Source of the DNA: Ralstonia sp. A12
Lineage (GTDB): Bacteria > Pseudomonadota > Gammaproteobacteria > Burkholderiales > Burkholderiaceae
Reading direction: 5' to 3'
Assembly (NCBI RefSeq): GCF_000801955.1
Contig: NZ_JSZO01000017.1
Span: 1 to 42,368, forward strand
DNA length: 42,368 nucleotides
Under the pieces are notes generated by a model. It ran no database searches. It saw only the letters and a list, made by a program, of their open reading frames with translations, and was not told the DNA's origin. Of the stretch, positions 6,837-15,310 are shown in pieces (the stretch's first letter is position 1; every line of letters starts with the position of its first letter). The position numbers and the translations under genes are program-made.

Positions 6837-7691
6837 ATGGCAATTCAAGTGGTCGGCATCGTCGGTGCCGGAACAATGGGCAACGGCATTGCGCAAGCGT
6901 GCGCCGTGGTTGGGCTGGACGTGGTGATGGTGGACATCAGCGATGCCGCCGTGCAGAAGGGCATCGCCACCGTGGCGGGCAGCCTGGACCGCCTGATCAA
7001 GAAAGAGAAGGCAACCGAAGCCGACAAGGCCGCCGCGCTGGCACGCATCCAGGGCTCGACCAGCTATGACGACCTCAAGCGCGCCGACCTCGTGATCGAA
7101 GCCGCCACCGAGAACTTCGACCTGAAGGTCAAGATCCTCAAGCAGTTGGAAGCGGTGGCCGCGCCGCACGCCATCGTCGCGTCCAACACGTCATCGATCT
7201 CGATCACCAAGCTGGCCGCCGTGCTACAAGACGCCAGCCGCTTCATCGGCATGCACTTCTTCAACCCGGTGCCGATGATGGCGCTGGTGGAAGTCATTCG
7301 TGGCCTGCAGACGAGCGATGCCACGCACGCCGATGTCGAGGCGCTGGCCAAGCAACTCGGCAAGACGCCGATCACCGTCAAGAACAGCCCGGGCTTTGTG
7401 GTCAACCGCATCCTGTGCCCGATGATCAACGAGGCGTTCTGCGTGCTGGGCGAAGGCCTGGCCTCGCCGGAAGAGATTGACGAGGGCATGAAGCTCGGCT
7501 GCAACCACCCGATCGGGCCGCTGGCGCTGGCCGACATGATCGGCCTGGACACCATGCTGGCCGTGATGGAAGTGCTGTACACCGAGTTTGCCGACCCCAA
7601 ATACCGCCCGGCCATGCTGATGCGCGAAATGGTGGCCGCCGGCTACCTGGGCCGCAAGACCGGTCGCGGTGTGTACGACTATCGCAAGTAA
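6837..7691 (+). CDS. 3-hydroxybutyryl-CoA dehydrogenase
   Basis: 284 residues. A Rossmann GAGTMG at about 10-15 binds NAD(P). GMHFFNPVPMMALVEVI carries the family signature with the catalytic histidine, followed by NSPGFVVNRI and the C-terminal dimer domain ending GRGVYDY. It oxidises or forms 3-hydroxyacyl-CoA in fatty acid, polyhydroxybutyrate or aromatic-acid metabolism (Hbd/PaaH class). The start is fixed by gcgaggag just upstream of ATG 6837; the frame extends further upstream only as shadow. It is monocistronic, ending in a strong terminator. Which pathway it serves cannot be told from this location. Confidence 0.93.
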   Translation: MAIQVVGIVGAGTMGNGIAQACAVVGLDVVMVDISDAAVQKGIATVAGSLDRLIKKEKATEADKAAALARIQGSTSYDDLKRADLVIEAATENFDLKVKILKQLEAVAAPHAIVASNTSSISITKLAAVLQDASRFIGMHFFNPVPMMALVEVIRGLQTSDATHADVEALAKQLGKTPITVKNSPGFVVNRILCPMINEAFCVLGEGLASPEEIDEGMKLGCNHPIGPLALADMIGLDTMLAVMEVLYTEFADPKYRPAMLMREMVAAGYLGRKTGRGVYDYRK

Positions 7692-7761
7692 CTGCGCACA
7701 ATCGCGCTGTCCGCCAACTGTCAGGCCGGATTCGCGCGAACTGTCCGTAAGTGTGCATGGA

Positions 7762-7810
7762 GGCGGTGTGGCGGTGCGTTGATGATGACGCATCGCCACA
7801 CCGCTTTTTT
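7762..7810 (+). terminator. Strong Rho-independent terminator
   Basis: A long stem (gcggtgtggcg from 7763, cgccacaccgc ending 7804, extended inward by tgcgt/atgca-like pairing) is followed by six T residues at 7805-7810. It ends the 3-hydroxybutyryl-CoA dehydrogenase transcript and separates it from the PhzF-family gene. Confidence 0.85.
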
Positions 7811-7834
7811 CCTTTTCACACACCGGACACTGCC

Positions 7835-8704
7835 ATGTCGCGCTACGCCTACCGTCTGCTCAACGTCTTTGCTGAATCCACCTTTGGCGGCAACCAGCTC
7901 GCCGTCTTTGAAGACGGGCGCGGCTTGGACGATGCCACCATGCAGGCCATCGGACGCCAGTTCAACCTGTCCGAGATCACCTTCATTTTTCCGGATGACA
8001 CGGACGGTGCCACGGCGCGCTTCCGCATCTTCACGCCCGATTACGAGATGCCGTTTGCCGGCCACCCGTCGCTGGGGACCGCGCAGGTGGTGCGCGAGCT
8101 GTACGGCCCGGGCAATGAGCTGACGCTGCGCTGCCAGTCGGGCATCGTGTCGCTCACGGCGCAGGATGAAGGGTGGTCATTGGTGCCGCCGCGCTCGGGT
8201 GCGCTGAATACGCGCGAAGCCGATCCGGCCATTGCGAAGATGCTCGGGCTGGACACGGATGCATTGGCGGGCCCGCCGTTGTGGGTCGATGCGGGGATCG
8301 AGCAACTGATGGTGCCGGTCAAGACGCGTGCCGATGTGGAGCGCGCTCGCCCCGATCCCGCTGCGTTCGACGCCTGGCCGCGCAGCCGCAATGATGGGCG
8401 CAACGCCTACGTGTTCACCATGCCGGCATTTGGCAACGGCGCCGGCAGCAATGACCCGGTGGTGTCGCGCTTCTTCTTCGAATACGGCACGGGCCTGTGG
8501 GAAGACCCGGGCACCGGTTCGGCCTGTGCCAACCTGGGCGGCTGGCTGCGTGCGACTGAGCACACGTTGCCGGCAAGCTACCGCATCGAGCAGGGCGCCG
8601 CGGTGGGGCGGCCGTGCTACCTGACGCTGAAGGTCGATGCGGACGGCACCATCCACGTGGGCGGCCGCGTGATCGAGATCGGCCGCGGCACGCTGACGAT
8701 TTGA
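7835..8704 (+). CDS. PhzF-family isomerase/epimerase-like protein
   Basis: 289 residues starting MSRYAYRLLNVFAES. The two-domain diaminopimelate-epimerase-like fold is indicated by FGGNQLAVF, the glutamate in FNLSEITF (about 47, matching the catalytic Glu of PhzF), the FTPDYEMPFAGHPSLG segment and EDPGTGSACANLG. Only PhzF itself is tied to phenazine synthesis, and no other phenazine gene is nearby, so this is best called a PhzF-like protein of unknown substrate. The start is taken at 7835 because the upstream frame runs through the terminator hairpin. Confidence 0.9.
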   Translation: MSRYAYRLLNVFAESTFGGNQLAVFEDGRGLDDATMQAIGRQFNLSEITFIFPDDTDGATARFRIFTPDYEMPFAGHPSLGTAQVVRELYGPGNELTLRCQSGIVSLTAQDEGWSLVPPRSGALNTREADPAIAKMLGLDTDALAGPPLWVDAGIEQLMVPVKTRADVERARPDPAAFDAWPRSRNDGRNAYVFTMPAFGNGAGSNDPVVSRFFFEYGTGLWEDPGTGSACANLGGWLRATEHTLPASYRIEQGAAVGRPCYLTLKVDADGTIHVGGRVIEIGRGTLTI

Positions 8705-8721
8705 GTGGTCAAGCGGCGACG

Positions 8722-9261
8722 CTAGTTGGCGACGTTGAACTGCTTACAGAAGAACGTCGTCCCGCACGGCGCGCCGTCGGGCATCAACGCGTAGTTGGGC
8801 ACGGTGCCCACGCGCTGCCAGCCGGCGCGTGCGTACAGCCGCTCGGCATCGCCGCCGGTGACGGTGTCGAGCACCAGCACCGTCTTGCCTTCGGCACGTG
8901 CGATGTCATCAATCGCCGCCATCAATTGCTGCGCAATGCCTTGCCGACGGGCGCGGCGGTGCACAAGCATCTTCGCCACGTCTGCCCGGTGCGGCTGATT
9001 TTCGGGCTGTGCCAGAATCAACTGCACGGTGCCCAGGACGGTGCCGTGCGCGTCTTCAGCAATCAGCAAGGCGCGTTCGTTGCGCGCGACCCCTTCGGCC
9101 ACGTTGCGCCAGAACGCCTGCGCCTTGTCATGCGACAACGGTTGCATGAAGCTGACCGACGCGCCGCCTTCCACGCAATCGACCAGCACATCGGCCAGCG
9201 CATCGACGCAGGTGCGCGCTTCATTGGCACCCACGCGGCGCACGATCACGGTGTCGGTCAT
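8722..9261 (-). CDS. GNAT-family N-acetyltransferase
   Basis: 179 residues from ATG 9261. The acetyl-CoA binding motif A is seen as VAKMLVHRRARRQGIAQQL (R-x-x-G-x-A), followed by VLVLDTVTGGDAERLYARAGWQRVG, a typical motif B. The ATG overlaps the stop of the upstream XRE-cupin gene (ATGA at 9258-9261), so the two are translationally coupled and probably share one promoter. The acceptor molecule is unknown; small-molecule amine acetylation, as in detoxification, is common for such stand-alone GNATs with a dedicated regulator. The longer frame to 9438 overlaps the regulator and is rejected. Confidence 0.9.
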   Translation of the reverse strand: MTDTVIVRRVGANEARTCVDALADVLVDCVEGGASVSFMQPLSHDKAQAFWRNVAEGVARNERALLIAEDAHGTVLGTVQLILAQPENQPHRADVAKMLVHRRARRQGIAQQLMAAIDDIARAEGKTVLVLDTVTGGDAERLYARAGWQRVGTVPNYALMPDGAPCGTTFFCKQFNVAN

Positions 9262-9845
9262 TTCGGTCTCCAGCCAACAGGTGACACGGTGGTGAGCGCC
9301 ACCAGATAGCGCGCCGGCCGCTGCGTCGGGTTGTGAAAGACGATCGGGCGATCCAGTTGCATTGCCAGGCAATCGCCCGCGCTCAGGCGCCAATGCACGT
9401 CGCCCACGGTCATTTCCATCGTGCCTTCCACGATCCACACCTGCTGGTAGATCTCGGCATCACGCACGCTGGTGTCGTAGGCCACGCGCTGGCCGGGCGG
9501 AAAGTGCACCTCCACGAGCTGGATAGGCGAGCGGGCGGCCGGTGAGAGGTTGCGGCGTACATAGCCTGAGCTGGGGTCCGTCCATTCCAGCTGGTCGGCC
9601 GCGCGCGCCACGGGTGAGGGCTCGGCGGCCGGCGCCGCGCCCTCTTCGAACAGCGAGGCGAGCGTCACGCCCAGCGCAGAGCTGAGCCGGTCGAGCACGG
9701 CGGCGGTCGGGCTGCTTTGGCCGCGCTCGATCAGGGAGATGGCCGAGCGGCTGACCTGGCTGCGTTCGGCCAGGGCGTCGAGCGAGAGCCCTTGCGCGTC
9801 GCGCAGTTCACGCAGGCGGTGGGCGATGCGTTGGTGGATGTCCAT
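9258..9845 (-). CDS. XRE-family regulator with C-terminal cupin domain
   Basis: 195 residues from ATG 9845. The N-terminal lambda-repressor-like helix-turn-helix covers about 8-62 (GLSLDALAERSQVSRSAISLIERG). The C-terminal cupin (about 110-190, PPGQRVAYD, QVWIVEGTMEMTVG, LSAGDCLAMQ) would bind a small effector. This is the PuuR/SutR-like arrangement, where the cupin senses a metabolite. It is translationally coupled to the GNAT gene, suggesting that it controls that enzyme. A long dyad at 9852-9883, immediately upstream, fits autoregulation. An in-frame ATG at 9872 lies inside that dyad and is less likely to be used. Confidence 0.9.
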   Translation of the reverse strand: MDIHQRIAHRLRELRDAQGLSLDALAERSQVSRSAISLIERGQSSPTAAVLDRLSSALGVTLASLFEEGAAPAAEPSPVARAADQLEWTDPSSGYVRRNLSPAARSPIQLVEVHFPPGQRVAYDTSVRDAEIYQQVWIVEGTMEMTVGDVHWRLSAGDCLAMQLDRPIVFHNPTQRPARYLVALTTVSPVGWRPK

Positions 9846-9851
9846 GGGGGT

Positions 9852-9883
9852 CAGTTTAATGGAAATTTTCATCCAGTAAACTG
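9852..9883 (-). promoter_or_regulatory. 32-bp dyad, likely operator of the XRE-cupin/GNAT pair
   Basis: The arms cagttta (9852-9858) and taaactg (9877-9883) are perfect inverted repeats, with an inner gg/cc pair (9861-9862, 9873-9874) placed symmetrically. The site lies 7 bases before the regulator start codon. Its AT-richness contrasts with the surroundings, as expected for promoter and operator. Confidence 0.6.
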
Positions 9884-9965
9884 GAATTTGGAGGGGTGGC
9901 GACCGCCTTCGTCTTTGATCGTGCCTTCCGCATGCGCCAGCCGGGCGACGAGGCCGCTCAGCAAG

Positions 9966-10010
9966 TAGACATAATTTTCTAGACAAGATTTTCTAGACAA
10001 GATAGTCTAC
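9966..10010 (+). promoter_or_regulatory. TAGACA half-site array upstream of the BlaI-type gene
   Basis: TAGACA occurs at 9966-9971, 9980-9985 and 9994-9999, exactly 14 bp apart. The 14-mer attttctagacaag is repeated perfectly in tandem at 9974-9987 and 9988-10001. The last half-site forms a dyad with gtcta at 10005-10009 (tagac-N6-gtcta). A possible promoter (TAGACA 9980-9985, 17 bp, TAGTCT 10003-10008) overlaps the array, as expected for repressor control of the blaI-like gene. No copy was found before the beta-lactamase gene. Confidence 0.6.
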
Positions 10011-10042
10011 ATGTCGATCTCCAGTACAGCCGACGTGTAGCC

Positions 10043-10426
10043 ATGACCAAGACCTCATCCCGCATCAAGCCCACCGCTGCTGAGCTGAACCTCCTGCGCG
10101 TGTTGTGGCAACTGGGGCCGGCCACGGTCAAGCAAGTGCATCAGGCGGTGCAGGTCGAGAAGCCGGAAACAACCTATGCCGCAGTGCTGCGCCAGTTGCA
10201 GATCATGCATGGCAAAGGGATGTTGATGCGCGACGAGCGCGAGCGCTCGCATGTGTATGCGCCGGCGCAGCGCCAGAACGTTCTGCAGAGCGGTCTGCTG
10301 AAGGAGTTCATCAACAAGGCGTTTGATGGTTCCGGCAAGGCGCTTGTCCTGGCAGCGCTGCGCGGACATGTGACCAAGGAAGAGCGCGCCGAGATCGAAG
10401 CGTTGCTGCGCGGGGACGACCTGTGA
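10043..10426 (+). CDS. BlaI/MecI/CopY-family repressor
   Basis: 127 residues. The winged helix (about 8-80: PTAAELNLLRVLW, VKQVHQAVQ, TTYAAVLRQLQIMHGKGML, ERERSHVYAPA) is that of BlaI/MecI. The C-terminal helices (LLKEFINKAFDGS and onward) would dimerise. Such repressors hold beta-lactamase or copper genes off until a membrane sensor inactivates them. The gene overlaps the sensor gene by 4 bases (GTGA), so the pair is one transcript. The Shine-Dalgarno is weak. The half-site array just upstream is a plausible target. A CopY role is unlikely, because no copper gene is near and the partner is a BlaR1-like sensor. Confidence 0.88.
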   Translation: MTKTSSRIKPTAAELNLLRVLWQLGPATVKQVHQAVQVEKPETTYAAVLRQLQIMHGKGMLMRDERERSHVYAPAQRQNVLQSGLLKEFINKAFDGSGKALVLAALRGHVTKEERAEIEALLRGDDL

Positions 10427-12204
10427 GCACAACGCCTGCCATCGTGGTTCAGGCGCTGGGCTGGGCACTGCTGCACTTTCTCTGGAAGGGCACACTGCTG
10501 AGCCTGGCTGCTGCGCTGTTCCTGCGGCTGACGCGCGGCAGCCGACCGCAGATCCGGTACATCGTGCTCTGCGCGGCTTTGGCCCTGTGCGTGCTGGTTC
10601 CCCTCATCGACGGCTATCGAGAATTCACCGCGATGACGGCGGCCTCCGTCGTCATCGACCCGGCGCAAGCCGTACCCGTTTGGCTGCAGCAGGCCGCAGT
10701 GCCTGCCTTGTCGGAAGCCCCCATGCTTTGGGTCGTGGTGGCCTGGCTGCTTGGCGTCGGCCTCATGACGGTGCGTGTGGTCGTGGGGCTGGCATGGGTG
10801 CACCGGCTCGCGCATGCCACGCAAGCCTGCACCAACGATGCGTGGCAGGCCTGTGTGTCGGCGCTTGCGCAGCGTTGTGGCGTGCGCCGCCCGGTCCGGC
10901 TTCGGGTCGTGCCGTGCTTGTCCAGTCCGGTCACTGCCGGTTGGTGGCGCCCGATCGTGCTGGTGCCCGCTTCGTTGTTGACGCAGATGCCGCCGGACCT
11001 GATCGAAGCGCTGCTGGCACACGAGATCGCCCACATCCGGCGTTTCGACTATCTCGTCAACCTCCTGCAGCGGGCGATCGAGGCCCTGCTCTTCTATCAC
11101 CCCGGCGTGTGGTGGTTGTCAGGGCGTATCCGAGTGGAGCGGGAGCTGATTGCCGATGAACTTGCCGCGAGCCTGACGGGCAACGCGCGGCATCTGGCAC
11201 TGGCGCTCAATCAACTGAGCCTGCTGCAGACCGTGGAGACCACCCCGGCAGGCGCGGCACTGTCGGCACGCGGCGGTGTGCTGTCCGAGCGCATTCGCCG
11301 GCTGGTCAGGCCGCAGCCGCAGCCTGCGGGATGGGCGTCGGTGGGCTTCACTGCCACGCTCGGCATTGCGTTGCTGGTGTCGGCAGCCGTGGTGCCGCGC
11401 TACCTCGACCGGGCTGTCGCTCGCGAGATCCAGTCCGTATCGGACGATGCGCGGCATGTGCTCGCCCACGCATCGGCCATCGGTAAGGTCGAGGCGCTAG
11501 CCGGCCTGATCCAATCCCAACACGTGTACGTGGTGGAGGACGACAGCGGCAAGGTGCTGCTCCGGAAAGATGCCGATCGCATGGTTCCGATTGCATCGTT
11601 GACCAAGCTGATGACCGCGATGGTGGTGCTGGATGCACAGCCCGACCTGGACCGTATCGTGCAGATTGCCCCAGCCGACGCCGGCACACCGGAGCTGCGT
11701 CGTGCGGGGGTGCCGATCGGGACGCGCTTGCCGCTGCGCGATGTCATGCAGCTTGCGCTGATGTCGTCGGATAACCGGGCTGCCTTTGCATTGGCGCGGA
11801 CGTATCCCGGTGGTATGCCGGCATTCCAGCGCGCGCTGCAGGCCAAGATTGCCGCGCTGGGGCTGCAGCACACAGCCTTGAATGAGCCGACCGGTCTGTC
11901 GCCGCACAACCGGTCGACGGCCAGCGATATCGCCACGCTTGCCAAGGCTGCGGCCGACTACCCGGAAATCCGCCGCGATACGACCTACACGCGCGAGACC
12001 GTGCAGATCAACGGCCAGCCGGTTGAGTACCGCAACACCAATCCGCTGGTGGGCGCGCGCGGCTGGGATATCCAGCTCTCCAAAACAGGCTTTACCGATG
12101 AGGCCGGCCGCTGCCTGATCATGCAGATCCGTTCTGCCGGCACCAGCATCACGATGGTCTTGCTCAATGGGCATCGCGCGGTGACGGTACCCACCATGTC
12201 TTGA
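10423..12204 (+). CDS. BlaR1-like M56 metallopeptidase fused to an S11 penicillin-binding domain
   Basis: 593 residues, GTG start overlapping the blaI-like stop. Residues about 1-330 form an M56 membrane metallopeptidase: several hydrophobic segments, zinc site HEIAH at 200-204 and a candidate third ligand in RVERELIADELA at about 241-245. A final membrane segment lies near 305-325. Residues about 363-593 are an S11 (PBP7/DacA-type) serine peptidase domain with SLTK 392-395, SDN 449-451 and KTG 554-556. Canonical BlaR1 instead ends in a class D beta-lactamase-like sensor. I infer that beta-lactam acylates Ser392 outside the membrane and signals M56 cleavage of the repressor. All catalytic motifs are intact, so a D-Ala-D-Ala peptidase activity is also possible. 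Confidence 0.88.
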   Translation: MSTTPAIVVQALGWALLHFLWKGTLLSLAAALFLRLTRGSRPQIRYIVLCAALALCVLVPLIDGYREFTAMTAASVVIDPAQAVPVWLQQAAVPALSEAPMLWVVVAWLLGVGLMTVRVVVGLAWVHRLAHATQACTNDAWQACVSALAQRCGVRRPVRLRVVPCLSSPVTAGWWRPIVLVPASLLTQMPPDLIEALLAHEIAHIRRFDYLVNLLQRAIEALLFYHPGVWWLSGRIRVERELIADELAASLTGNARHLALALNQLSLLQTVETTPAGAALSARGGVLSERIRRLVRPQPQPAGWASVGFTATLGIALLVSAAVVPRYLDRAVAREIQSVSDDARHVLAHASAIGKVEALAGLIQSQHVYVVEDDSGKVLLRKDADRMVPIASLTKLMTAMVVLDAQPDLDRIVQIAPADAGTPELRRAGVPIGTRLPLRDVMQLALMSSDNRAAFALARTYPGGMPAFQRALQAKIAALGLQHTALNEPTGLSPHNRSTASDIATLAKAAADYPEIRRDTTYTRETVQINGQPVEYRNTNPLVGARGWDIQLSKTGFTDEAGRCLIMQIRSAGTSITMVLLNGHRAVTVPTMS

Positions 12205-12214
12205 TTCGCATCCT

Positions 12215-12243
12215 GCGCGGCGCCTGACTGAACAGTCGGCGCG
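12215..12243 (+). terminator. Hairpin after the hybrid sensor gene, possible terminator
   Basis: gcgcggcgcctgact pairs with agtcggcgcgc around a gaac loop, with one or two bulges. The following sequence is only moderately T-rich (ttgtttcctgtgtttgc). It may attenuate readthrough into the beta-lactamase gene 150 bases on. The rest of the gap to 12391 shows no half-site like those at 9966-10010. Confidence 0.4.
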
Positions 12244-12391
12244 CATCGCGTTGTTTCCTGTGTTTGCTTTCCTGTCTGGCTGATTGCATGCGGCCGGCCG
12301 GTCGGTGTTCGCCTGCAGTCTGGCCTTTCAACCCTGCCTCCTTCTTGCCGAAATCGGCACGCGGATCGAGGCATCCTCAAGAGAGAAGAAC

Positions 12392-13213
12392 ATGAAACGC
12401 TGGTGTGTCGCGGCAGCCATTCTGGCCGCCAACGTGGTGAGCCCAACAGCTCACGCCGAAACCCTCTGCACCGTCGTCGCAGATGCGGCGTCGGGCAAGG
12501 TACTGGTGCAGAACGGTGATTGCGCCACGCGCGTGACACCGGCGTCTACCTTCAAGATTGCGCTCAGCCTGATGGGGTTCGACGCCGGCATCCTCAAGGA
12601 TGAACATACGCCCACGCTGGCGTACCACGACGGCGATGTCGCGTGGGGCGGTGACGCTTGGCGGCAGCCCACGGACCCGGCGCGTTGGATCCAGTACTCG
12701 GTGGTCTGGTTCTCGCAGCGGGTGGCGCAGTCGCTTGGCGACACCCGCTTTCAGCACTACGCCGACGTGTTCGACTACGGGAACCGAGATGTGTCTGGTG
12801 AGCCGGGTAAGCACAACGGCACCGCTGGCGCGTGGATCAACTCGTCGTTGCAGATATCGCCGCTGGAGCAGGTGGCCTTCCTGCGCAAGGTTGCCAACCG
12901 TACGCTTCCGGTGAGTGCCACTGCCCTGGACATGACCTGGCGCGTGACGGAAATCGCCGCGCGCCCGGATGGGTGGACGATTCATGGCAAGACGGGGACG
13001 GGCTCTCCGGGAGCACCGATCACGCATGAAGGCCACTACGACCGCGCGCACGCTTACGGCTGGTTCGTCGGCTGGGCAACGAAGGGGTCGCGCACGCTGG
13101 TGTTTGCGCGCCTGACCCAGGACGCGCAGGCGCAACCGGCGCCCGCCGGCATGCGCACACGCGATGCGCTGCTGGCCGAGCTGCCGTCGTTGGTCGATGG
13201 CGCCACACGATAG
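12392..13213 (+). CDS. bla: Class D beta-lactamase, OXA-22-like
   Basis: 273 residues with a Sec signal ending ...TAHA (about 22). Class D motifs are complete: STFK 52-55 (acyl-serine and carboxylated lysine), SVV 103-105, YGN 129-131, Trp148 in AWINSSLQIS and KTG 200-202. It hydrolyses penicillins and related drugs in the periplasm. Segments such as FDAGILKDEHTP, YGNRDVSGEPGK and AHAYGWFVGWA resemble what I remember of OXA-22 of Ralstonia pickettii, but many positions differ, so it looks like a separate member. ATG 12392 follows gagagaag. It lies 187 bases after the hybrid sensor gene and 7 before the acyltransferase gene. R. pickettii OXA enzymes are known to be inducible; induction here is inferred from context. 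Confidence 0.92.
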   Translation: MKRWCVAAAILAANVVSPTAHAETLCTVVADAASGKVLVQNGDCATRVTPASTFKIALSLMGFDAGILKDEHTPTLAYHDGDVAWGGDAWRQPTDPARWIQYSVVWFSQRVAQSLGDTRFQHYADVFDYGNRDVSGEPGKHNGTAGAWINSSLQISPLEQVAFLRKVANRTLPVSATALDMTWRVTEIAARPDGWTIHGKTGTGSPGAPITHEGHYDRAHAYGWFVGWATKGSRTLVFARLTQDAQAQPAPAGMRTRDALLAELPSLVDGATR

Positions 13214-13220
13214 GCCGGCC

Positions 13221-14363
13221 ATGCGTATCGACATGCGCAACAGGCGCATCGATGTGATCCGCGGGGTCGCCATCCTGCTTGTCCTGTTCCATCACTTCAA
13301 CATCGCCTATCGCTTGAGCGATACGTCGCTCGCTGCGGCTTTCGGGTCGGAGCTTGTGCAGGCCGTGGCCCGCAACGGCAACTACGGGGTGACCCTGTTC
13401 TTCGTGGTTTCGGGTTACCTGATCACCTCGAACGCCTTGCGCCGCTGGGGCCAGCTCAGCCGTATCGACGCGTGGGCGTTCTATGGGCTGCGCATCGCGC
13501 GCATCGTGCCGTGCCTGCTGTTGCTGTTGTTGATCGTGAACGTGCTCGCGCTGAGTGGTGTTGCGATCTTCCAGAACCATGCCGCGACGGGTGAGCCCGT
13601 CCCGCTATGGCACGTCAACCTGGCAAGCCTGACCTTCACCATGAATCTGCTGATCAGCCGGGTCGGATGGATCAACTATCCGTTGGGCGTCTTGTGGTCG
13701 CTCTCGGTGGAAGAGGTGTTCTACCTCACCTTCCCGCTGCTGTGTCTCGTGCTTCGGCGTGAGTCGCTGCTGTGCCTGTTCTGGGCGGCAATCATTGCGG
13801 TTGGCCCGCTGTACCGGCTGACCCATCAAGGCGATGAGGCTGGATTTCTGTATGCGTACTTCGCCAGCTTCGACGGGATTGCCATTGGCTGCGGCGCTGC
13901 CGTTCTGTCTAGACGGTTCGTCTTGGCTGGCATGTCGACCTGGTTTGTGCAGGGCGCAGTCGTGGCCTTGATGACGTTTCTCTATCTGTGGTGGCCGATC
14001 GCGCAGAGCAACGTCCTGGGTGTGACGGCGATGGCGCTGGGTACGGCCGCCCTGTTGTGGCCGGTGCAGCGTTCAGCGCCCAGTGATGAGCTGCGCTTCA
14101 ACCGCTTGGGTGCAATGGTGGCGTGGTGCGGCAAGAACAGCTACGAGCTGTACCTGTTCCACCTGATCCCGCTGGCGGTGCTCAAGACGGGGTTCCCGCG
14201 TGCAAGCGTTGCCGGCGACGAGAAGCTCGTGCTGCTGGCGGTGTTCATGCTGCTTTCATTGTTGCTGGCAGCGGGCATTGCCCGGTACTACGCCGAGCCG
14301 CTCAACCGCATGCTCCGCCAACGTATCGCGCGGCCACGGTCTGTGCCGTCCACCATCGCTTGA
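13221..14363 (+). CDS. Acyltransferase 3 (OafA/YrhL-type) membrane protein
   Basis: 380 residues with about ten membrane segments. It opens RNRRIDVIRGVAILLVLFHHF, where the arginine and paired histidines are the conserved active residues of the family, and continues with GNYGVTLFFVVSGYLI and WSLSVEEVFYLTFPLL. Such enzymes acylate sugars of O-antigen, peptidoglycan or exopolysaccharide. The gene starts 7 bases after the beta-lactamase stop, so it is likely co-transcribed with it, and a cell-envelope modification role alongside a beta-lactamase is possible but unproven. ATG 13221 is used because the frame upstream overlaps the beta-lactamase gene. Confidence 0.9.
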   Translation: MRIDMRNRRIDVIRGVAILLVLFHHFNIAYRLSDTSLAAAFGSELVQAVARNGNYGVTLFFVVSGYLITSNALRRWGQLSRIDAWAFYGLRIARIVPCLLLLLLIVNVLALSGVAIFQNHAATGEPVPLWHVNLASLTFTMNLLISRVGWINYPLGVLWSLSVEEVFYLTFPLLCLVLRRESLLCLFWAAIIAVGPLYRLTHQGDEAGFLYAYFASFDGIAIGCGAAVLSRRFVLAGMSTWFVQGAVVALMTFLYLWWPIAQSNVLGVTAMALGTAALLWPVQRSAPSDELRFNRLGAMVAWCGKNSYELYLFHLIPLAVLKTGFPRASVAGDEKLVLLAVFMLLSLLLAAGIARYYAEPLNRMLRQRIARPRSVPSTIA

Positions 14364-14368
14364 ACGAA

Positions 14369-14400
14369 GGCGCTTCGCCTCGGCAACTGAGGCGAGCGCC
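14369..14400. terminator. Hairpin between convergent genes, probable bidirectional terminator
   Basis: ggcgcttcgcctc (14369-14381) pairs with gaggcgagcgcc (14389-14400) with a single bulged base. It lies between the acyltransferase stop and the stop of the LysR gene facing it. No clear T-tract on either side. Confidence 0.55.
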
Positions 14401-14407
14401 GTACGGG

Positions 14408-15310
14408 CTACGCGGGGTTGTGTGCTTTGCCGGCACGCTCGAATAGCCATGCAAGGAAGGTGTTGAGTGGCAGGTCATCTGCGGCATCCCGATGCAGGCA
14501 GTGAAACGGCGGTCCCTCGAGCTTGACCTCCGGAAACAGCATGACGAGCCGCCCGTGGTCGACGTCGTCCTGAATCACCGCCCGTGGGGCCAGGCAGACC
14601 CCCAGGCCACTCATCGCGGCTTTCACCAGCAAGGCAAATTCGTCGTAGAACGGCCCACGCAGGGTCTCACCAATCGAAACGCCGGCCTGGTGAAACCAGT
14701 ACTGCCACGCCTGCGGCAAGCCGGCGTAATGCAGCAGCGGCGCATGACGCAAGTCAGCCGGTGTGCGTACCGCAGCCAACGCTGGATGATGCGGCGCGCA
14801 AATCGGCACCGCCGCGTTGGCTACCAGCGGCTTCGACACGAACCCCCGGCGCCGCAACTCCGGCGTGTAGCGGCGAATGACCACGTCGCTCGATTCATCG
14901 ATGCGCTCCACGTCGGTGTCGGGCGTGGACACCAGTTCAATGTCGATACCCGGGTGCTGCGCATGGAAGTGCACCAGTTGCGGAAGCAACCAACCGTGGG
15001 CGAACGACGATGAGGTGTTGATCCGGATCTGCTGCCGATCGGGCGCCTCGAACATCTGCTCCGTGGCCTCGGTCAGGCGCCCGATGCAACTTGCAACGTC
15101 GACCAGGTAGTGCCGGGCCCGCAACGTCAGGCGCAGGGATCGTCCATCGCGCTCGAACAGCTTCTGCCCGAAGAACGTTTCCAGCACGCGGATCTGTTGC
15201 GCGATCGCGCTTTGCGTCACGTTCAACTCTTCGGCGGCAAGGGTCAGGCTGTTCAGGCGTCCGGCAGCTTCAAAGCTGCGCAAGGCATTGAGAGGAGGGA
15301 GTCGGCGCAT
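14408..15310 (-). CDS. LysR-family regulator of the GcvA/AmpR type
   Basis: 300 residues. The start MRRLPPLNALRSFEAAGRLNS and helix-turn-helix LTLAAEELNVTQSAIAQQIRVLE are characteristic of the GcvA/AmpR branch; the effector domain follows from about residue 90 (SSSFAHGWLLPQL). It faces the beta-lactamase/acyltransferase genes tail-to-tail and diverges from the lipoprotein gene, with an inverted repeat (15324-15342) in the shared 97-bp gap. The simplest target is the lipoprotein gene plus itself. AmpR relatives control beta-lactamases in other bacteria, so a role in bla control is conceivable but has no direct sequence support. Confidence 0.9.
   Translation of the reverse strand: MRRLPPLNALRSFEAAGRLNSLTLAAEELNVTQSAIAQQIRVLETFFGQKLFERDGRSLRLTLRARHYLVDVASCIGRLTEATEQMFEAPDRQQIRINTSSSFAHGWLLPQLVHFHAQHPGIDIELVSTPDTDVERIDESSDVVIRRYTPELRRRGFVSKPLVANAAVPICAPHHPALAAVRTPADLRHAPLLHYAGLPQAWQYWFHQAGVSIGETLRGPFYDEFALLVKAAMSGLGVCLAPRAVIQDDVDHGRLVMLFPEVKLEGPPFHCLHRDAADDLPLNTFLAWLFERAGKAHNPA

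What the first reader, a model, noticed from the sequence alone, without database searches (positions are those of the whole stretch)
10043..12204. BlaI repressor paired with a BlaR1-like sensor carrying an S11 penicillin-binding domain
Canonical BlaR1/MecR1 ends in a class D beta-lactamase-like sensor. Here the M56 protease (HEIAH 200-204) is joined to an S11 carboxypeptidase-type domain with intact SLTK, SDN and KTG (392, 449, 554). An inducible system could thus sense beta-lactams, or cell-wall peptides, through a true penicillin-binding protein. Because the S11 domain keeps all catalytic motifs, the natural ligand may be a muropeptide rather than a drug. The next gene is an OXA enzyme.
Basis: partly seen in the sequence, partly recalled or inferred. 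Interest (0 to 1): 0.8.

Follow-up and report, generated by a model that had tools for sequence, protein, structure and literature searches.

The report
BlaR1-like sensor with penicillin-binding domain
A Ralstonia operon pairs a BlaI repressor with a membrane protease whose outer part is a cell-wall enzyme (a penicillin-binding protein), and related operons in other genera carry unrelated kinds of beta-lactamase in the same slot, so it is very probably a penicillin-alarm switch that differs from the classical one.

Summary
blaI (10043-10426) overlaps a 593-aa gene (10423-12204) joining an M56 protease to an S11 domain with intact HEIAH, SLTK, SDN and KTG. The domain is closest to PBP7-type D,D-endopeptidases; no class D domain matches. 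I found 39 full fusions, all in genomes of one order. blaI is immediately upstream in 39 of 39; the nearest tested gene downstream is a beta-lactamase in 29 (class D 6, A 7, B3 16), a TonB-dependent receptor in 9, none in 1. All 13 active-site residues checked are intact in 39 of 39. All 39 carry 2-3 dyads in exact 14-bp register before blaI; here the exact array is found nowhere else, so OXA probably depends on read-through. Most likely it is a BlaR1/BlaI-type switch sensing beta-lactams by acylation of a PBP7-like domain; sensing, cleavage and induction are inferred. Intact motifs do not argue for a muropeptide ligand. Three classical residues (repressor-cut Phe, loop Phe, Tyr261) are not kept, so the cutting step must differ. 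New variant of a known kind.

The parts
9966..10009 (+). Operator array: three dyads TAGACA-N6-TCTA in exact 14-bp steps (9966, 9980, 9994). It overlaps a promoter-like pair TAGACA (9980-9985) / 17 nt / TAGTCT (10003-10008).
   Evidence: three of only four exact matches in the 6.1-Mb genome; 2-3 dyads (at most 1 mismatch) at 14-bp spacing upstream of blaI in 39 of 39 loci. The promoter assignment is my reading; the promoter scan did not list it.
10043..10426 (+). blaI: BlaI/MecI-type repressor, 127 aa
   Evidence: Pfam Penicillinase_R 70.7 bits; aligns to S. aureus BlaI 1sd4 and MecI 1sd6; immediately upstream in 39 of 39 loci
10423..12204 (+). BlaR1-like sensor-protease, M56-S11 fusion, 593 aa
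   Evidence: hydropathy peaks at residues 16-34, 44-62, 104-122 and 306-324 fit four membrane helices; AlphaFold2 mean pLDDT 85.6, pTM 0.55
10621..11235 (+). M56 metalloprotease domain (residues 67-271), HEIAH at 11020-11034, E241 to D245 at 11143-11157
   Evidence: Pfam M56 89.7 bits; profile of 6 fusions hits S. aureus BlaR1 8exs at 4.8e-13 over profile positions 103-324; H200, E201, H204, D209, E241, D245 kept in 115 of 115 aligned proteins and 39 of 39 loci
11509..12171 (+). S11 PBP7-type penicillin-binding domain (residues 363-583): S392 and K395, S449 and N451, KTG 554-556
12205..12391 (+). 187-nt gap between sensor and OXA; no exact operator dyad; one weak terminator-like stem at 12237-12253 (4 such sites in the scanned stretch 9850-14500, 3.1 expected by chance)
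12392..13213 (+). Class D beta-lactamase (OXA), 273 aa
   Evidence: NCBIfam NF000270 357.8 bits (cut-off 280); best family model OXA-1043, 404.7 bits, below its 525 cut-off
13221..14363 (+). Acyl_transf_3 family acyltransferase; belongs to the cassette
   Evidence: Pfam PF01757 105.4 bits; directly after bla in 12 of 12 loci of the family survey

Best explanation
A BlaR1/BlaI-type beta-lactam switch in which the class D-like sensor is replaced by a PBP7-type S11 domain. BlaI binds the 14-bp tandem array over its own promoter and holds down blaI, the sensor, OXA and the acyltransferase as one unit. A beta-lactam in the periplasm acylates Ser392 of the S11 domain; the movement is passed through the four membrane helices to the M56 protease, which cuts or otherwise inactivates BlaI; the operon is transcribed, OXA rises through read-through, and new BlaI restores repression. 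Shown by computation: gene order, domain identities, intact active sites, purifying selection, operator array, and pairing with beta-lactamases of three unrelated classes. Inferred: acylation as the signal, the membrane relay, BlaI inactivation, read-through into OXA.
For: blaI immediately upstream in 39 of 39 fusion loci and a beta-lactamase as the nearest tested downstream gene in 29 of 39 (class D 6, class A 7, B3 16; curated models passed by the examples checked). Controls gave no beta-lactamase: 0 of 16 single S11 loci in Ralstonia, 0 of 7 M56-without-S11 loci, 0 of 10 rows of single S11 genes in other genomes (7 distinct genes); 23 of these 33 stretches have only about 1.5 kb on each side. 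All 13 active-site residues checked are intact in 39 of 39 loci; of 115 aligned homologues 109 keep all 11 checked there, and 115 keep the protease residues. dN/dS of the S11 part is 0.09-0.10. Operator array in 39 of 39, its exact form found once in this genome. The S11 fold is one whose solved members are listed with penicillin G, ampicillin, imipenem or meropenem bound (5zqb, 3ita, 3mzf, 6ntz). A separate PBP7-like gene (42-45% identical) lies elsewhere in this genome, so the fused copy is an extra. Recalled, not seen in any call: Rossolini et al. 2001 reported that the J. lividum B3 activity is elicited by beta-lactams; the paper is not held.
Against: No induction, binding or cleavage data exist here. 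In 9 of 39 loci the next gene is a TonB-dependent receptor and in 1 (G697) none of the tested genes. The Phe at P1' of the classical BlaI cut (F102 in S. aureus) aligns to Ala105 in 39 of 39; the position aligned to Phe284 of the autocleavage loop is never Phe (0 of 39; 0 of 115); Tyr261, called near strictly conserved and needed for induction in B. licheniformis (PMC9834060, passage), aligns to residue 260, which is Tyr in 0 of 115. So the cut and part of the protease site differ from the classical ones. The loop that plugs the classical sensor (EL1) is poorly conserved here (mean majority fraction 0.24). No exact operator lies before OXA, so its control depends on read-through across 187 nt. 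The curated BlaR1 model (NF000326) is matched only over residues 103-248, 60.6 bits against a cut-off of 400.
Confidence: 0.77

Rival explanations
1. The S11 domain mainly senses cell-wall state (cross-linked muropeptides or their absence) as a working D,D-endopeptidase, and beta-lactams act indirectly; beta-lactamase is only one of several outputs.
For: The domain is endopeptidase-type with all checked catalytic residues kept. The next gene is a TonB-dependent receptor in 9 of 39 loci. In G697 a second operator array lies upstream of an esterase-like gene (naming by eye).
Against: Classical BlaR1 sensors keep the same kind of motifs (PMC9834060 passages), so intact motifs do not discriminate. 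Three unrelated beta-lactamase classes in the slot point to beta-lactams as the relevant signal in those genomes.
Confidence: 0.12
2. The fusion is chiefly a membrane-anchored murein endopeptidase, and the neighbouring blaI and bla are not functionally tied to it.
For: S11 domain closest to PBP7 endopeptidase.
Against: blaI adjacent in 39 of 39 and bla nearest in 29 of 39; the protease residues checked are invariant in 115 of 115 homologues, which a mere anchor would not need; purifying selection also on the M56 part (dN/dS 0.19-0.23).
Confidence: 0.04
3. OXA here is controlled by another regulator (for example one like RP3 of R. pickettii) and the BlaI pair serves only its own two genes. (Not exclusive of the main reading for the sensor itself.)
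For: RP3 controls OXA-22 and OXA-60 in R. pickettii (PMC3660660 passage). There is a 187-nt gap with a weak terminator-like stem before OXA and no exact operator there.
Against: Between the ends of the alignments the gap from sensor to bla is 50-68 nt in 6 of 7 class A loci (140 in G1220) and 30-120 nt in the 16 B3 loci, as in a single operon, though 103-290 nt in the 6 class D loci; the order blaI-sensor-OXA-acyltransferase is kept in 6 of 6 class D loci.
Confidence: 0.1

Closest known systems
BlaR1/MecR1 with BlaI/MecI (Staphylococcus, Bacillus licheniformis)
   Same: BlaI-type repressor next to a four-helix M56 zinc protease with HExxH and ExxxD and a C-terminal penicillin-binding sensor; beta-lactamase gene adjacent
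   Different: Sensor is S11/PBP7-type, not class D-like; P1' Phe of the BlaI cut and of the autocleavage loop and Tyr261 not kept; 14-bp tandem operator layout; Gram-negative host; output is a class A, B3 or D enzyme or a TonB-dependent receptor
BlaR homologues of Oxalobacteraceae with a class D site and an M56 domain (PMC9045261, passages)
   Same: Gram-negative, M56 protease joined to a penicillin-recognising domain
   Different: Class D-type sensor rather than S11
PBP7/PbpG D,D-endopeptidase (S11)
   Same: Fold and catalytic motifs of the C-terminal domain
   Different: PBP7 is a separate gene (a 42-45% identical copy lies elsewhere in this genome); here it is fused behind four helices and a protease
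RP3-controlled OXA-22/OXA-60 of Ralstonia pickettii (PMC3660660, passage)
   Same: Inducible class D enzymes in Ralstonia
   Different: RP3 is described there as a DNA-binding positive regulator, not a membrane protease with repressor
PbpP/sigma-P of Bacillus thuringiensis (PMC8092216, passages)
   Same: A penicillin-binding protein serves as beta-lactam sensor for beta-lactamase expression
   Different: Acts through proteolysis of an anti-sigma factor by other proteases; not fused to a protease

Membership tests
BlaR1/MecR1 sensor family | M56 gluzincin protease with HExxH and ExxxD | tested here: met
   Pfam M56 above cut-off; H200, E201, H204, D209, E241, D245 in 115 of 115
BlaR1/MecR1 sensor family | Four membrane helices with sensor after the last | tested here: met
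   Four hydropathy peaks and long helices in the model; side of the membrane not tested
BlaR1/MecR1 sensor family | Class D-like sensor domain | tested here: not met
   S11 170.3 bits, no class D/Transpeptidase match at E <= 0.01
BlaR1/MecR1 sensor family | Curated model NF000326 at its cut-off | tested here: not met
   60.6 bits against 400, protease part only
BlaR1/MecR1 sensor family | Tyr261 near the zinc site | tested here: not met
   Aligns to residue 260: Tyr in 0 of 115, Leu in 86; a one-place shift of the alignment would not give Tyr either
BlaR1/MecR1 sensor family | Autocleavage loop with P1' Phe284 | tested here: inconclusive
   Aligned position 283 is Phe in 0 of 39 (R 22, H 7, N 5, K 2, others 3) and 0 of 115; the loop is gapped in the alignments, so the register is uncertain
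BlaR1/MecR1 sensor family | Sensor acylated by beta-lactams; BlaI cut on induction | not testable with these tools
   needs protein experiments
BlaI/MecI repressor family (Pfam Penicillinase_R) | Pfam model at cut-off | tested here: met
   70.7 bits, cut-off 22.6; the specific NCBIfam BlaI and MecI models stay far below their cut-offs
BlaI/MecI repressor family (Pfam Penicillinase_R) | Phe at P1' of the cut (F102) | tested here: not met
   Ala105 in 39 of 39
S11 penicillin-binding proteins (PBP7 type) | S11 model, SxxK, SxN, KTG | tested here: met
   NCBIfam PRK11669 is the best model but 211 bits is under its 294 cut-off
S11 penicillin-binding proteins (PBP7 type) | Covalent penicillin binding or peptidase activity | not testable with these tools
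   needs labelled penicillin or muropeptide assay

The most novel reading that the evidence does not exclude
A separate lineage of BlaI/M56 switches in Burkholderiales reads the periplasm through a working PBP7-type murein endopeptidase, so that one protein can report both beta-lactams and the state of wall cross-links. It has been paired with class A, B3 and D beta-lactamases and with TonB-dependent receptors, using one operator grammar and a repressor cut different from the staphylococcal one.
Probability: 0.25. Interest if true: 0.85.

Novelty: new variant of a known kind. Interest (0 to 1): 0.7.

Why it matters
Beta-lactamase induction in Gram-negative bacteria is usually explained by indirect routes (AmpR with muropeptides, recalled; two-component systems, PMC3660660 passage). 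This would be a direct-sensing route with a real penicillin-binding protein as receptor, found next to three of the four Ambler classes, including B3 enzymes. It also shows that the M56 protease is a platform on which the sensor can be exchanged, which makes the question of how sensor acylation drives the protease testable with a second, unrelated sensor fold.

Tried and rejected
Rejected: a class D sensor; a frameshift or chance fusion (39 loci, intact motifs; dN/dS); an exact operator in front of OXA. A second exact site in this genome is a single dyad at G000:C21 near aroQ- and thioredoxin-like genes (naming by eye); the reversed control pattern has 9 matches, so I take it as chance. With one mismatch the double array has one further place in this genome, G000:C60:60824, not followed up; other genomes of that call also have such one-mismatch places, and the control patterns have 0-4 per strand. 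The two other OXA-like genes of this genome (G000:C12, 56%; G000:C32, 34%) carry no exact operator.

Led nowhere or limited: structure search with the whole model lists only S11-type folds among the 50 shown, so the M56 part was not tested by fold. The S11 tree does not settle whether the fusion arose once (2 changes needed, 1 not excluded; quick method, SH-aLRT only); single S11 genes of Massilia-like genomes, 59-62% identical, fall among the fused ones. The genome contig scan returned 36 loci; by coverage of the query one, Ralstonia sp. ASV6, is a full fusion. Class and phylum surveys found no further full fusion at E <= 1e-60. In print: in the searches no listed title or abstract start described an M56-S11 sensor; two searches listed only 15 of 98 and 15 of 591 papers, searches found none, and most subscription papers are not held. 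On re-checking I lowered the main confidence from 0.80 to 0.77 because Tyr261 proved not to be kept.

Full report

Is the fusion real and maintained. A protein search returned 1943 relatives at E <= 0.001 among the 7998 candidates scored; all 120 listed carry both M56 and S11 by precomputed Pfam. The named ones belong to Burkholderiales genera except P0049, named Azospirillum. I aligned 115 of the 120 and left out 5 with partial coverage. H200, E201, H204, D209, E241, D245, R290, S392, K395 and S449 are invariant in the 115; 109 of 115 keep all 11 catalytic positions checked, the other 6 differ or are gapped at N451 or KTG. Among three Ralstonia species the S11 part has dN/dS 0.09-0.10, the M56 part 0.19-0.23, OXA 0.08-0.11.

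Distribution. Full fusions were found in 3 of 16 Ralstonia genomes, 12 of 398 genomes of the family, which include these 3, 3 new ones among 399 genomes of the order (besides the window's own and these 3, seven genomes passed the threshold with M56 or S11 or both on separate genes), 2 of 10 in the family of G725, both already known, and 25 of 245 in the family of G630, one already known (E <= 1e-90). No further one came from 369 genomes of the class or 299 of the phylum, each at E <= 1e-60. Together 39 distinct loci, all in the order of the window. One Ralstonia genome (G007) keeps only an S11 tail and the acyltransferase, with an unrelated OXA next to them; it is described only and not counted.

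Neighbourhood. In all 39 loci blaI lies immediately upstream on the same strand, 0-72 nt between alignment ends. Classes were set by tblastn to references; the examples that I scanned pass the curated class A (2 of 2), B3 (1 of 1) and class D (2 of 2) models. A named record shows the class A form: Paraburkholderia caribensis plasmid 2, BlaI, M56 metallopeptidase, class A beta-lactamase, acyltransferase. The acyltransferase follows bla in 12 of 12 loci of the family survey and lies divergently beside blaI in G1220; none is listed near the other 26. Controls in the same call: 16 Ralstonia loci of single S11 genes (15 PBP7-like, 1 DacA-like), 7 M56 loci without S11, and 10 rows (7 distinct genes) of single S11 genes elsewhere gave no beta-lactamase hit, though 23 of the 33 stretches have only about 1.5 kb on each side.

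Operator. Upstream of blaI all 39 loci hold two or three dyads of the form TAGA(C/A)A-N6-TCTA (at most 1 mismatch each) spaced exactly 14 bp. In the window they start at 9966, 9980 and 9994. The exact form TAGACA-N6-TCTA occurs four times in the whole genome, three of them here; the control (pattern read backwards) occurs nine times, so single sites mean nothing but a triple in register does. In 12 genomes searched for a double array, the exact form lies at one place only in 10; G1371 has a second one before another blaI-M56 pair and G697 a second one before an esterase-like gene (the esterase naming is by eye). One-mismatch places elsewhere occur in several of these genomes, one of them in G000 (C60), in numbers like those of the control pattern. 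BlaI-M56 pairs without an S11 domain carry the same type of site (5 of 5 with a found blaI, two of them with a single exact dyad), so the array belongs to this BlaI lineage rather than to the S11 sensor. No exact dyad lies between sensor and bla in any of the 39. The array overlaps a promoter-like pair (TAGACA, 17 nt, TAGTCT), my reading; the consensus scan did not list it.

How it most likely works. By analogy with BlaR1 (PMC9834060) the S11 domain is acylated at Ser392 by a beta-lactam, the signal crosses the membrane, and the M56 protease inactivates BlaI. Solved S11 enzymes of the same fold are listed with penicillin G, ampicillin, imipenem and meropenem, which makes acylation plausible. 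Four points differ from the classical system. Phe102 at the BlaI cut aligns to Ala105 in 39 of 39, inside an invariant A-L-R stretch. The position of Phe284 in the autocleavage loop is Phe in 0 of 39 and mostly Arg (22), with some doubt about register. Tyr261, near strictly conserved in BlaR1 and needed for induction in B. licheniformis by that paper's account (passage), aligns to a residue that is Tyr in 0 of 115. The loop that plugs the classical sensor is variable here (mean majority fraction 0.24). In B. licheniformis a cytoplasmic peptidoglycan dipeptide acts on BlaI as co-inducer (PMC3305447, abstract and outline only); whether that holds here is unknown.

Ligand. Intact catalytic motifs do not argue for a muropeptide: the classical sensor is a beta-lactam receptor with its own SXXK and KTG (PMC9834060 passages). 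The argument for beta-lactams is the pairing with three unrelated beta-lactamase classes. The argument for something broader is the TonB-dependent receptor group (9 of 39). The five kinds of neighbouring output need at least 5 changes on the M56 tree, 4 being the least possible (quick tree, many weak forks), so each output is nearly a lineage of its own and the 39 loci are not independent cases.

Novelty. BlaI/M56 signalling is known, and class D-type BlaR homologues in Oxalobacteraceae are in print (PMC9045261, passages). PBPs as beta-lactam sensors are known from PbpP (PMC8092216, passages). None of the titles or abstract starts listed describes an S11-type BlaR1, and searches returned nothing; two of these lists were capped, and the library does not hold most subscription papers. 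I rate it a new variant of a known kind.

Noticed in passing
L091 (G007:C16) 6987-9416: A Ralstonia genome keeps only the last part of a fused S11 domain (92% to P. caribensis) and the acyltransferase (89%), with an unrelated OXA gene beside them; a short stretch recurs on both sides of the OXA gene, as after insertion of a mobile element. Described only.
   Followed up: partly
window 13221-14363: An Acyl_transf_3 acyltransferase is part of the cassette in 12 of 12 loci of the family survey and lies divergently beside blaI in G1220; its role in a beta-lactam response is unexplained.
   Followed up: partly
L109, L111, L148, L151, L157, L158, L168-L170: In 9 loci blaI and the M56-S11 gene are followed by a TonB-dependent receptor instead of a beta-lactamase.
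   Followed up: partly
L112, L113, L115, L117, L118, L121: Related M56 proteins in Massilia-like genomes end in a TonB_C domain (L115 by Pfam; L117, L118, L121 by eye) or a helical region (L112, L113, by eye) instead of S11, with the same operator type upstream: the outer module is exchangeable.
   Followed up: partly
L095-L099, L005, L006: Single S11 genes 59-62% identical to the fused S11 domain, closer than the Ralstonia PBP7 (42-45%); possible source or offshoot of the sensor domain.
   Followed up: partly
L207 3172-4169: In G697, whose blaI-sensor pair has no beta-lactamase next to it, a second operator array lies just upstream of an esterase-like gene (named by eye).
   Followed up: no
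window 14408-15310: A convergent LysR-type gene follows the cassette in all three Ralstonia carriers (92% identity in both relatives).
   Followed up: no
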